A DNA stretch of 51,390 nucleotides from NCBI GenBank assembly GCA_026015185.1, contig JAOZGX010000016.1, forward strand, positions 1-51,390. Direction: 5' to 3'. Source of the stretch: Candidatus Bathyarchaeota archaeon (GTDB lineage: Archaea > Thermoproteota > Bathyarchaeia > 40CM-2-53-6 > RBG-13-38-9). The position numbers were made by a program, and so were the translations under genes. The notes below the pieces were generated by a model, which did no database searches, had not been told where the DNA came from, and saw nothing but the letters and a program-made list of their open reading frames with translations. Below, piece after piece: positions 48,708 through 51,390 of this stretch (position 1 is the first letter of the stretch; each line of letters opens with the position of its first letter).

Positions 48708-48909
48708 AATGTTTCACTTGATTACCACAATTGATTTTCAATAATATCGTAAATTAAAGTTAAATAAGATTTACTTTAATGCGTGATTAATCAATTAGAT
48801 ATTAAAAATACCAATAAAACCCTAAAATGGTTGAGAAAAGATTTTATTATGTATTCTTTGATTAATTATGCTTAAATTTGCGGCCATAGTCTAGCCTGGT
48901 TTAGGACAT

Positions 48910-48937
48910 AACTTTACTACTATCATCAAGTGTCCAA
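48910..48937 (+). other. tRNA intron 1, after position 27
   Basis: 28 bases. Exon GGAC pairs with intron GTCC, and intron ACTT pairs with AAGT. This leaves 3-base bulges ATA and AAT at the two cuts, as in bulge-helix-bulge splice sites. The position is non-canonical. Confidence 0.75.
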
Positions 48938-48947
48938 TGGCCTTCCA

Positions 48948-48965
48948 AAGAAAAAGTCTGTGGAT
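48948..48965 (+). other. tRNA intron 2, canonical 37/38 site
   Basis: 18 bases in the anticodon loop. Pairing of TCCA (anticodon and next base) with TGGA near the intron end gives a central helix. The exact cut may be one base later with the same product. Confidence 0.75.
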
Positions 48966-49177
48966 AGCCAACAACCCGGGTTCAAATCCCGGTGGCCGCA
49001 CCACTTACCTTACTTCATATAAAGTTTAACCATGGCTTTAAGAAAGAATGGCTATAGAACTTTTATTTATATGCGTTTCTAGTGCAAAATACTGTTCCCC
49101 ACCGCAAAAACAATCAAAAATCTAGCAAGTGAGTGCGTTTTCAATAGAAAATTTAGAATGTCAATATAATCTTGATC

Positions 49178-49202
49178 GGTTCAAATTTGGGTGCTCGCAC
49201 CA
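49178..49202 (+). other. tRNA 3'-end-like fragment
   Basis: GGTTCAAATTTGGGTGCTCG followed by CACCA matches the 3' end of the nearby tRNA-Gly at 20 of 25 positions, including the T-loop and CCA. No matching D or anticodon arm precedes it. It may be a relic of integration or tRNA duplication. Confidence 0.35.
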
Positions 49203-49300
49203 AGGTACCCACACACACAATATTATTACTCATGATGTAATTATCAAAAGGAAGATAGGAAGGGGATTAAGGAAGAAGGAAGAGACTATAGCGCATGCTA
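49196..49300. repeat. Mosaic repeat A, 3' of the pilin gene
   Basis: It contains three modules: M3 at 49196-49216 (20 of 21 identical to 49952-49972 in inverted orientation), M2 at 49226-49268 (41 of 43 identical to 50904-50946), and M1 at 49287-49300 (13 of 14 identical to 50884-50897). It lies within about 150 bases of the pilin stop. On the minus strand it is pyrimidine-rich. Confidence 0.75.
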
Positions 49301-49348
49301 ATACAATATCGATATAAAAAAAGGTAAAGTATGGAAATAGAGTTTAAT

Positions 49349-49813
49349 CTAAGCCGCACGACCAGCTACAGCCGAATAGGTGAACACACCGCCTGATTCT
49401 GTAACGACTTTTATCGTATAAGCTGCACCAGGGGTCAGATTGGTTGAGGTTACACCGCATGTGAAAATTTCATACGTACCAATAGATATGACACCAGTAC
49501 CGCCAGATGCTGCACCGGCACCATCGAATACTTCGATTCCTGCATTAGTGGCTACATATAACTCGTCAACTATAATCTCAGCTCTACCTACGTTACGAAG
49601 GTACATCTCTAATGAACCGCTTGATGCATTCCAATCATATACGTCGAGTGTGATCTGCTCAGTGACTTGCTCACCGCCTCCGGTTTGCAGTCCTCCGATA
49701 AGACCCATGGCCCACACGTATACTAGAAGTGCTGCGGCTACTGCGATAGCGATTACAAGTAGAGTCGCAATTACAGGCGATACGGCTTTTCTATTTGCCA
49801 TCAATTTTTTCAT
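49349..49813 (-). CDS. Archaeal type IV pilin-like protein
   Basis: 154 residues. The class III signal is clear: a short basic leader MANRKAVSPVIATLL followed by a hydrophobic helix (VIAIAVAAALLVYVWAMGLI). A prepilin peptidase would cut just before or within the AVSPVIA segment and the helix would pack in a pilus core. The rest is a beta-rich head (DVYDWNASSGSLEMYLRNV, GTYEIFTCGV). It is likely an adhesion pilus subunit or a single-gene pilin. No prepilin peptidase or assembly ATPase is visible. The ATG at 49813 is chosen; an in-frame ATG five codons later (MANRK) is also possible. Confidence 0.85.
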   Translation of the reverse strand: MKKLMANRKAVSPVIATLLVIAIAVAAALLVYVWAMGLIGGLQTGGGEQVTEQITLDVYDWNASSGSLEMYLRNVGRAEIIVDELYVATNAGIEVFDGAGAASGGTGVISIGTYEIFTCGVTSTNLTPGAAYTIKVVTESGGVFTYSAVAGRAA

Positions 49814-49926
49814 TTTTAATTTCTTCTCCTATACTTTTAGTATTAAAAAAAATTGACACTTATGATTCTAAATACTCTCAATGTTAATTATATAAAAATT
49901 TCCATTAATATTAGAATTTCTATGCA

Positions 49927-50021
49927 CACCAATGCATCCGTATTCCACTATGTGTGTGGGTACATTGGTGCGCACACACACAGTTATTTTACTTATGTAG
50001 GCAATGGGATTAAGGAAGAAG
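49927..50021. repeat. Mosaic repeat B, 3' of the secreted-protein gene
   Basis: It contains a long imperfect stem (CACCAATGCATCC at 49927-49939 and GGGTACATTGGTG at 49958-49970), the M3 module, and a shortened M2 tail (GGGATTAAGGAAGAAG) near 50006-50021 shared with repeat A. It begins 19 bases after the stop of the 50040 gene. Confidence 0.7.
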
Positions 50022-50039
50022 AAACGAGTTAATGAAGGA

Positions 50040-50738
50040 TCAAACCCTAAATCTATATTTTCTATTAACCAATGAAAAAATAACAATACTACTAATCAAG
50101 CTAATGGCTAATAAATAAGGTGTAAGGACTTCCAATTTATTGATTTTATAGTAATCGCCTCCAACCACTTGACTGGTAATCCTGACTGGACCTGGATCTA
50201 CTGTTGCTCTAATCATATAGTCACAATCAAATCTATTCAGAGTCCAACTCCCAGGTGCGCCATCACATTCTGTACTATCATAGGATCTGCCATCTGGGTC
50301 CGTATAATCCATGCCGATATCGAGATCATTGTCCATGAATTGTACGGCTATATAAAAATCCCCAGTAACCATTATATTGTATGATGACAAGTCGGCATTA
50401 AACCAATCGGCAATAGTTGGTGTAACTACTAAAGGACCTAATAATACTGAACTGCCATCACTATCAAAAATATAAAGATTGAAGGCATCAGGATCTTCTT
50501 CAATATAAAACTTGGCTGTCAAGATCTTGGCCCTATCCAAACCTGGTGGTAAAGAAAATCTAACAGCAATGTAACAGCCATCCCCTCTTCCACGATCACC
50601 TGTAGATATACCATTGTCATAAGCCAACTCGATTGCTGCAAGTGCTTCAGATATAAAAGACGAGGCCATAATGGAAATTAAGAACATGATCATAATAGAA
50701 GTAATGGCTCTTTGTTTCAAAGAAGCTTTCCTTTTCAA
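50040..50738 (-). CDS. Secreted membrane-anchored protein
   Basis: 232 residues. A signal peptide covers 1-34. A beta-sandwich-like domain (about 35-185) includes ILTAKFYIEEDPDAFNLYIF and FYIAVQFMDNDLDIGMDY. A C-terminal anchor reads NKLEVLTPYLLAISLISSIV and a basic end (NRKYRFRV). The NKLxxLxPY-helix-basic order is common on archaeal surface proteins. There is no recognisable enzyme motif. It could be an adhesin or glycan-binding protein. Confidence 0.65.
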   Translation of the reverse strand: MKRKASLKQRAITSIMIMFLISIMASSFISEALAAIELAYDNGISTGDRGRGDGCYIAVRFSLPPGLDRAKILTAKFYIEEDPDAFNLYIFDSDGSSVLLGPLVVTPTIADWFNADLSSYNIMVTGDFYIAVQFMDNDLDIGMDYTDPDGRSYDSTECDGAPGSWTLNRFDCDYMIRATVDPGPVRITSQVVGGDYYKINKLEVLTPYLLAISLISSIVIFSLVNRKYRFRV

Positions 50739-50883
50739 TATACTTCCAATGTATTTGCTTCCCAGTTACAATTACTCCTTAAAACCAGCGTAAATAACCA
50801 GAAGATATCCTAACACATAGGATAGATAGGTCTTCATTAATATCGCTTTTGTATAAATTGTATATACGATATTTATTGAACAG

Positions 50884-50946
50884 TATAGCGCGTGCTAGAA
50901 ATTTTACTCATGACGTAATTATCGAAAGGAAGATAGGAAGGGGATT
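50884..50946. repeat. Mosaic repeat C, 3' of the right-edge gene
   Basis: M1 at 50884-50897 followed directly by M2 at 50904-50946. The M1-M2 order is the reverse of repeat A. It begins 12 bases after the stop of the edge gene on the minus strand. Confidence 0.7.
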
Positions 50947-50958
50947 GAGAAAAAACAT

Positions 50959-51390
50959 TTAGATGATAAAGGGAAAAAGAGTATAGAAAAAATTTGATTC
51001 CTGCAAGATAAAAAAATTAGTATCGGCGAATACCTCCAAAAAATCTAAAAAGTGGGCAAAGAAGAAGAATGAACTCTTCGCCTTTGTTTTATTGTTTTTC
51101 GTATGCTTCCATAGCTCTCTACACTCATATTCCAGCTTGAAGTAATGGCAACGTAAATCCCCTAATGCCTTAGCTTCCTCTTCTGTGAAGAACCTGCCAA
51201 TTTCGTATTGTTGGTTTACTAATTCATCAATAGCTTCAATAACCCGTCTGGGTTCTCTAACTGATTCTAGAACACATTCAAGACCCTTTAAGTATCTGGT
51301 CTCATGAGATTCCTGAAATTTTTCAGATAATTCAATTAGAATTTTCTTTGCTTCTTTTACCGAACCTTTTATAATAAGATCAAATAACTG
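50959..51390 (-). CDS. Partial helical hypothetical protein at window edge
   Basis: An open frame of 143 codons runs from the window edge to a TAA at 50959-50961; the N-terminus is outside the window. Visible segments include QLFDLIIKGSVKEAKKILIE, then RYLKGLECVLESV and RVIEAIDELVNQQ. It is all helical with no membrane segment until a Phe-rich tail (SSFFFFAHFLDFL). It resembles the small helical protein beside radA. Not identified; its stop sits next to mosaic repeat C. Confidence 0.5.
   Translation of the reverse strand, partial: QLFDLIIKGSVKEAKKILIELSEKFQESHETRYLKGLECVLESVREPRRVIEAIDELVNQQYEIGRFFTEEEAKALGDLRCHYFKLEYECRELWKHTKNNKTKAKSSFFFFAHFLDFLEVFADTNFFILQESNFFYTLFPFII

What the first reader, a model, noticed from the sequence alone, without database searches (positions are those of the whole stretch)
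49196..50946. Shuffled repeat modules after three consecutive genes
Three modules recur just downstream of three successive minus-strand genes: M1 (14 bp, 13/14), M2 (43 bp, 41/43 between A and C) and M3 (21 bp, 20/21, inverted between A and B). Their order and orientation differ between copies. Two of the three genes encode surface-type proteins. The elements may be mobile, serve in termination, or mark gene gain.
Basis: seen in the sequence. Interest (0 to 1): 0.6.

Follow-up and report, generated by a model that had tools for sequence, protein, structure and literature searches.

The report
Archaeal recombination-junction palindromes between genes
A 14-base motif, scattered about thirty times between the genes of one sediment archaeon and thirteen times in a relative, joins interchangeable end sequences and marks places where neighbouring genes have been swapped, but no known recombination enzyme accompanies it.

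Summary
In detail: M1 (13/14), M2 (41/43) and M3 (20/21, inverted) lie where stated, after three minus-strand genes. They are three different things. M3 is part of a genome-wide motif, core CGCACCAAGGTACC (29 exact copies in this 1.81-Mb Bathyarchaeia genome, 13 in one relative, DVMM_2, none in 255 other genomes of the class). Each core sits between two arms from a small repertoire: (GT)n, (CGT)n, (GA)n, a TATATCCCC type (on the other side as their reverse complements) and, on the left only, a tRNA-Gly 3'-end-like arm. Left and right arms assort independently. Pairs of sites share one flank, never both; one three-copy alignment is homologous up to the core and then diverges. In relatives a gene keeps its arm while the core is flipped. 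M2 is an accessory motif, mostly 40-70 bp from a core and pointing outward. M1 is a variant of a second dispersed palindrome, TAGCGCGCGCGCTA. Best reading: the core is a crossover point at which single-gene units have been rejoined. The enzyme is unknown: no tyrosine, serine, Y1 or IS110-type recombinase passes its cut-off in the genome. The main rival is a REP-like dispersed palindrome. Placement at gene ends fits REPs; arm exchange and kilobase-scale clustering do not.

The parts
49178..49195 (+). Left arm of copy A: tRNA-3'-end-like GGTTCAAATTTGGGTGCT (arm L1)
   Evidence: 80% identical over 25 bp to the tRNA-Gly 3' end at 48979-49003; the same arm is found at about 15 other sites in two genomes
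49061..49185 (+). Left flank unit shared with C20 and C100 (82-87% identical), joined there to other right flanks
49196..49210 (+). Core CGCACCAAGGTACCC, copy A (start of M3)
   Evidence: exact member of a dispersed family with 27 exact 15-mers in the genome
49211..49219 (+). Right arm of copy A, (AC)n (arm R1)
49226..49277 (+). M2 copy A, oriented outward from the core
   Evidence: 90% over 52 bp to 50904-50955; homologues beside cores in DVMM_2
49287..49300 (.). M1 copy A, TATAGCGCATGCTA (GC-palindrome variant)
49951..49957 (-). Right arm of copy B, (AC)n on the minus strand
49958..49972 (-). Core, copy B, CGCACCAATGTACCC (1 mismatch), inverted relative to copy A
49973..49982 (-). Left arm of copy B, (GT)n on the minus strand
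49991..50031 (+). Partial M2 beside copy B (AATGGGATTAAGGAAGAAGAAA), outward from the core
50884..50897 (.). M1 copy C, TATAGCGCGTGCTA
50904..50955 (+). M2 copy C, next to a GC palindrome instead of a core
49349..49813 (-). Pilin-like gene lying between the two inverted cores; about 93% identical paralogues on other contigs
   Evidence: PF07790 at 20.8 bits, below the 25.2 cut-off; paralogues
50040..50738 (-). Surface-type protein with signal peptide and C-terminal membrane tail
   Evidence: no Pfam match
50959..51390 (-). Gene of unknown family, continues into contig C31; 87% aa / 93% nt homologue beside core sites in DVMM_2
48880..49003 (+). Intron-containing tRNA-Gly(TCC), 193 bp upstream of copy A's core
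   Evidence: Rfam RF00005; ARAGORN allowing introns

Best explanation
M3 is one instance of a dispersed recombination junction. Its 14-bp core, CGCACC-AA-GGTACC, is an imperfect palindrome between two exchangeable arms. Shown: flanks and arms have been exchanged across the core many times in this genome and in a relative, the core can be flipped relative to a conserved gene-plus-arm, and sites cluster as islands with one or a few accessory genes between them. Inferred: the exchange is carried out by a dedicated site-specific recombinase acting on the core, so that the sites rejoin and invert single-gene units. The left half of the core, CGCACCA, equals a tRNA-Gly 3' end, which suggests the site descends from a tRNA-targeted attachment site. 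The enzyme would lie on an unbinned plasmid or virus, or belong to a family not tested. M2 is an accessory motif of the same sites and M1 a separate dispersed palindrome. Their roles (3'-end formation, protein binding) are guesses.
For: Core copies: 29 (G000), 13 (DVMM_2), 0 in 255 other genomes of the class. Arms assort independently: L1/L2/L3 x R1/R2 = 10:6, 11:3, 5:2, chi-square p=0.63 (arms classed by eye; test). (GT)4+ and (CGT)3+ runs hardly occur away from cores. Of 10 site pairs with one homologous flank none shares the other. The C16/C20/C100 alignment is homologous to the end of the core, then splits into AC or GAC arms and unrelated DNA. Three flanks lie beside the opposite half of the core in another site, arm kept. 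Sites cluster: 11 neighbour pairs within 6 kb vs 2.5 expected, 0/5000 simulations. C55 reads GT-core-GAC [SnoaL gene] CGT-core-AC, as if a CGT-core-GAC circle had entered a GT-core-AC site. Several site-neighbouring genes of DVMM_2 have homologues beside sites here.
Against: No tyrosine recombinase (PF00589), Y1 transposase (PF01797), serine resolvase (PF00239) or IS110 transposase (PF01548) passes its cut-off in this 96.6% complete genome; PF00589 and PF00239 also have no match in DVMM_2. Gene neighbours are ordinary accessory genes. No reads were available to show coexisting arrangements. In neighbouring direct pairs the inner arms match in only about 5 of 8 cases by my count, so the cassette model is not compelling. 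Inverting the pilin between 49196 and 49958 would carry its own promoter along, so no expression switch is evident. Paralogue homology stops at gene ends, not at the core.
Confidence: 0.45

Rival explanations
1. A REP-like family of extragenic palindromes: short hairpin elements dispersed by a lost or foreign transposase, whose arms were rewritten by slippage and template switching and which act, if at all, as hairpins at transcript ends.
For: About 30-36 nt, intergenic, palindromic when arms match, over-represented at convergent gene ends (8 of 20 vs 16% of intergenic bases, p=0.009), as published for REPs (PMC3733652). The CGT arm folds strongly, z -5.7. REPs have been reported in archaea (PMC12306157).
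Against: No RAYT/Y1 transposase. Many sites have non-matching arms and cannot form the long hairpin. Whole flanks up to 250 bp, not only arms, change at the core. Clustering is at 0.6-5 kb with genes between, not as tight dimers.
Confidence: 0.3
2. Transcript 3'-end modules: M2 read on the gene strand is a pyrimidine-rich tract after the stop codon, followed by a palindrome (core or GC type); together they end transcripts between genes.
For: M2 is at the 3' side of the adjacent gene in the window's three copies and beside the Alba and TFB genes; enrichment at convergent ends.
Against: No T-run follows the hairpin (T-tract on the 5' side, A-tract on the 3' side). Two M2 copies of DVMM_2 lie upstream of gene starts. 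Three cores lie between divergent genes. It does not explain arm exchange.
Confidence: 0.12
3. Decayed attachment scars of one family of integrating elements that used the tRNA-Gly 3' end (GCACCA) as target; arms are remnants of element and host DNA and nothing is active now.
For: A real intron-containing tRNA gene with a tRNA-Gly-like 3' end runs straight into the core..GGTGGCCGCACCA|AGGTACCC (C8:11726); about 15 sites carry a tRNA-3'-end-like left arm. tRNA 3' ends are usual archaeal targets (PMC8371274).
Against: No integrase beside the sites examined; the 15-mer in viral contigs gave only chance-like matches. The exact core is well conserved, unlike old scars.
Confidence: 0.13

Closest known systems
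REP / BIME palindromes (GTAG- and CGTC-tagged; PMC3733652)
   Same: short dispersed extragenic palindromes, at convergent and tandem gene ends
   Different: no RAYT, centre conserved instead of a tag at the foot, arms interchangeable, flank exchange at the core
Integron attC sites and CALINs, also reported in archaea (PMC9668308)
   Same: palindromic sites with variable stems, single genes between sites, crossover-like junctions
   Different: no IntI, no GTTRRRY/RYYYAAC ends by eye, conserved middle rather than ends, sites in both orientations and scattered over many contigs
Sites of serine DNA invertases (gix centre AAASSWWSSTTT, PMC5175349)
   Same: inverted half-sites round a central AA; the inner 8 bp ACCAAGGT fit ASSWWSST
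   Different: outer positions do not fit and half-site arms vary freely; no serine recombinase above cut-off in the genome
Archaeal tRNA-gene attachment sites of tyrosine integrases (PMC8371274)
   Same: left half is a tRNA-Gly 3' end; one core abuts a real tRNA gene
   Different: tens of copies per genome, no integrase found
Shufflons
   Same: several inverted sites interleaved with surface-protein genes
   Different: no Rci-like (PF00589) gene; sites lie between genes, not inside a pilin gene

Membership tests
REP elements | short extragenic palindrome in many copies | tested here: met
   29 exact cores, mostly intergenic, palindromic when arms match
REP elements | GTAG or CGTC tag at one foot of the stem | tested here: not met
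   CGTC occurs only in the (CGT)n arm, a minority of sites
REP elements | RAYT / Y1 transposase in the genome | tested here: not met
   PF01797 has no match at E<=1 in G000; CGTC-type REPs are also reported to lack a dedicated transposase
Integron / CALIN | IntI tyrosine recombinase | tested here: not met
   PF00589 0 matches in G000 and DVMM_2, control rings in 14/14; a CALIN would lack it anyway
Integron / CALIN | attC consensus ends RYYYAAC / GTTRRRY | tested here: not met
   absent from the sites by reading; no attC model was run
Serine invertase site | gix-like centre AAASSWWSSTTT | tested here: not met
   GCACCAAGGTAC fits only the inner 8 positions
Serine invertase site | serine recombinase gene | tested here: not met
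   PF00239 nothing above cut-off in 9 family genomes; the two weak hits here fall among ordinary genes
tRNA-targeted tyrosine integrase att site | core overlaps a tRNA gene end | tested here: met
   C8:11726 tRNA followed directly by the core
tRNA-targeted tyrosine integrase att site | integrase gene in an element bounded by direct att copies | tested here: not met
   no PF00589; neighbours examined are ordinary genes
IS110-type recombination site | DEDD transposase | tested here: not met
   PF01548 best hit E 0.2, below cut-off
Intrinsic terminator | GC hairpin followed by T-run | tested here: not met
   T-tract on the 5' side and A-tract on the 3' side of the palindrome
Active recombination site | coexisting arrangements in one population | tested here: inconclusive
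   C69 and C114 share 67+ identical bp up to the core and then differ; no reads. Sites lie near contig ends more often than chance: 7 within 250 bp vs 1.0 expected

The most novel reading that the evidence does not exclude
An undescribed archaeal gene-shuffling system: a site-specific recombinase of an unknown or unbinned kind acts on a 14-bp tRNA-derived core with modular palindromic arms, and moves single-gene units among about 30 chromosomal sites.
Probability: 0.25. Interest if true: 0.85.

Novelty: new variant of a known kind. Interest (0 to 1): 0.55.

Why it matters
If the junction reading is right, two Bathyarchaeia carry a lineage-specific way to rejoin single accessory genes (pilins, surface proteins, Alba, TFB, rhodopsin neighbours) without any of the usual recombinases, and the enzyme can be hunted with a precise 14-bp bait. 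If it is only REP-like, it is still a REP class with freely assorting arms and a tRNA-derived half.

Tried and rejected
Assembly or adaptor artefact: rejected, since copies lie inside contigs, their flanks have diverged to 73-90% identity, and the same core is in a second genome. Viral origin: the 15-mer in 2.9 million viral contigs gave 12 stretches without the arms. Gene cassettes cut at the core: paralogue homology ends at gene ends, not at the core, so the boundary enrichment (10 vs 2.9 expected for cores) is weak support only. L1 as a working tRNA-like gene: no Rfam tRNA match there. Known recombinase families: none above cut-off.

Full report
Observation. All three modules are present as described: M2 41/43, M3 20/21 and inverted, M1 13/14, each after one of three successive minus-strand genes. 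Chance is excluded locally. The window is contig C16 of a 1.81-Mb, 96.6% complete archaeal genome in 118 contigs. Its right end joins contig C31 by an exact 147-base overlap, so the third gene is completed there and the island goes on. On the joined contig four cores lie at 49196 (+), 49959 (-), 51643 (+) and 53236 (-), strictly alternating.

What the modules are. M3 belongs to a dispersed motif with core CGCACCAAGGTACC: 29 exact copies here, 13 in a family member whose records are Candidatus Bathyarchaeota archaeon DVMM_2, and none in the 255 other genomes of the class. A scan of 84,980 species genomes for core plus AC or GAC arm found only DVMM_2 and one chance-like bacterial match. The M3 core and the M1-type palindrome are the two strongest 10-mer outliers of the genome. 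M1 is a degenerate TAGCGCGCGCGCTA palindrome; 93 GC-rich alternating tracts were found in 1.48 Mb, with a patchy distribution over the class. M2 has two full copies here. Partial or homologous copies lie 41-67 bp from cores in both genomes, always pointing away from the core; two copies sit beside GC palindromes instead.

Arms. Each core is flanked by arms from a small set: on the left a tRNA-3'-end-like GGTTCAAATTTGGRTGCT, (GT)n, (CGT)n, (GA)n or a TATATCCCC type; on the right the reverse complements of the last four. (GT)4+ and (CGT)3+ are nearly confined to these sites. Matched arms make near-perfect palindromes, but many sites are mismatched, and left and right assort independently (p=0.63; arms were classed by eye).

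Exchange at the core. Flank comparison of 47 sites gave 10 pairs with one homologous flank and none with both. The clearest case is C16/C20/C100: about 120 bp of left flank plus arm plus core align at 85%, then the sequences split into AC, AC and GAC arms and unrelated DNA. In three cases a flank sits beside the opposite half of the core in another site, arm included, so the core is flipped relative to it. Genes next to sites in DVMM_2 have homologues next to sites here more often than I would expect, with other arms or neighbours; this was judged by eye, not tested. Sites cluster (11 neighbour pairs within 6 kb vs 2.5 expected) and lie near contig ends (7 within 250 bp vs 1.0 expected), as structural variation in the population would produce; no reads were available to show it.

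Origin hint. One core directly follows a real intron-containing tRNA gene ending GGTGGCCGCACCA (C8:11726). ARAGORN calls it Ser(TGA), which I doubt; its ends match the tRNA-Gly genes. The window's copy A lies 193 bp downstream of tRNA-Gly(TCC). So the left half of the core is a tRNA-Gly 3' end, a usual archaeal integration target (PMC8371274).

Mechanism. Shown: flanks and arms change at the core. Inferred: a dedicated recombinase does it. Against: tyrosine, serine, Y1 and IS110 families give nothing above cut-off in this genome, the first two nothing in DVMM_2 either, and the neighbouring genes scanned are ordinary (pilin-like, SnoaL, 2TM, DUF4386, Alba, TFB, methyltransferase). The central ACC-AA-GGT resembles the centre of DNA-invertase sites, but the full consensus fails. 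The REP rival is favoured by placement at convergent ends (PMC3733652) and disfavoured by exchange of whole flanks and by the absence of a RAYT.

Verdict. The reading as a recombination junction has moderate support, the enzyme is unknown, and the decisive test is read-level evidence of junction exchange.

Noticed in passing
whole genome, e.g. C44:4224, C113:6149; window 49287-49300, 50884-50897: A second dispersed palindrome TAGCGCGCGCGCTA, with 41 strand hits of TAGCGCGCGCGC here and 39 in DVMM_2, also in distant families (G013, G054) but absent from most relatives; often at edges of duplicated genes.
   Followed up: partly
contig C31:17832-18476, just beyond the window's right end after joining: A bacteriorhodopsin-like gene (PF01036, E 3e-29) beside a core site in a Bathyarchaeon.
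   Followed up: no
window 50040-50738; C9:377-1072; C114:60935-61564; C20:554-1873: Surface proteins next to core sites share a C-terminal tail of the form VGGYY..NKL.V..PYLA plus basic end, perhaps a sorting signal.
   Followed up: no
G000 and DVMM_2 genomes: No PF00589 match at all, so XerA seems to be missing, while some family members have such genes.
   Followed up: partly
C100:24930-26795, C103:19251-20249, C44, C73: Several closely similar transcription factor B genes, two of them beside core sites, one with an Alba gene.
   Followed up: no
C37 end, C79 end, C68 start: Assembly branch inside the pilin gene family: two different flanks lead into one identical 147-mer.
   Followed up: partly
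C69:3917-3978 and C9:15589: Variant sites with other centres: CGCACCATATAGGGCGACGACG, and CGTCGTCGTCGCGTACCGATGTACCCACACACA.
   Followed up: no
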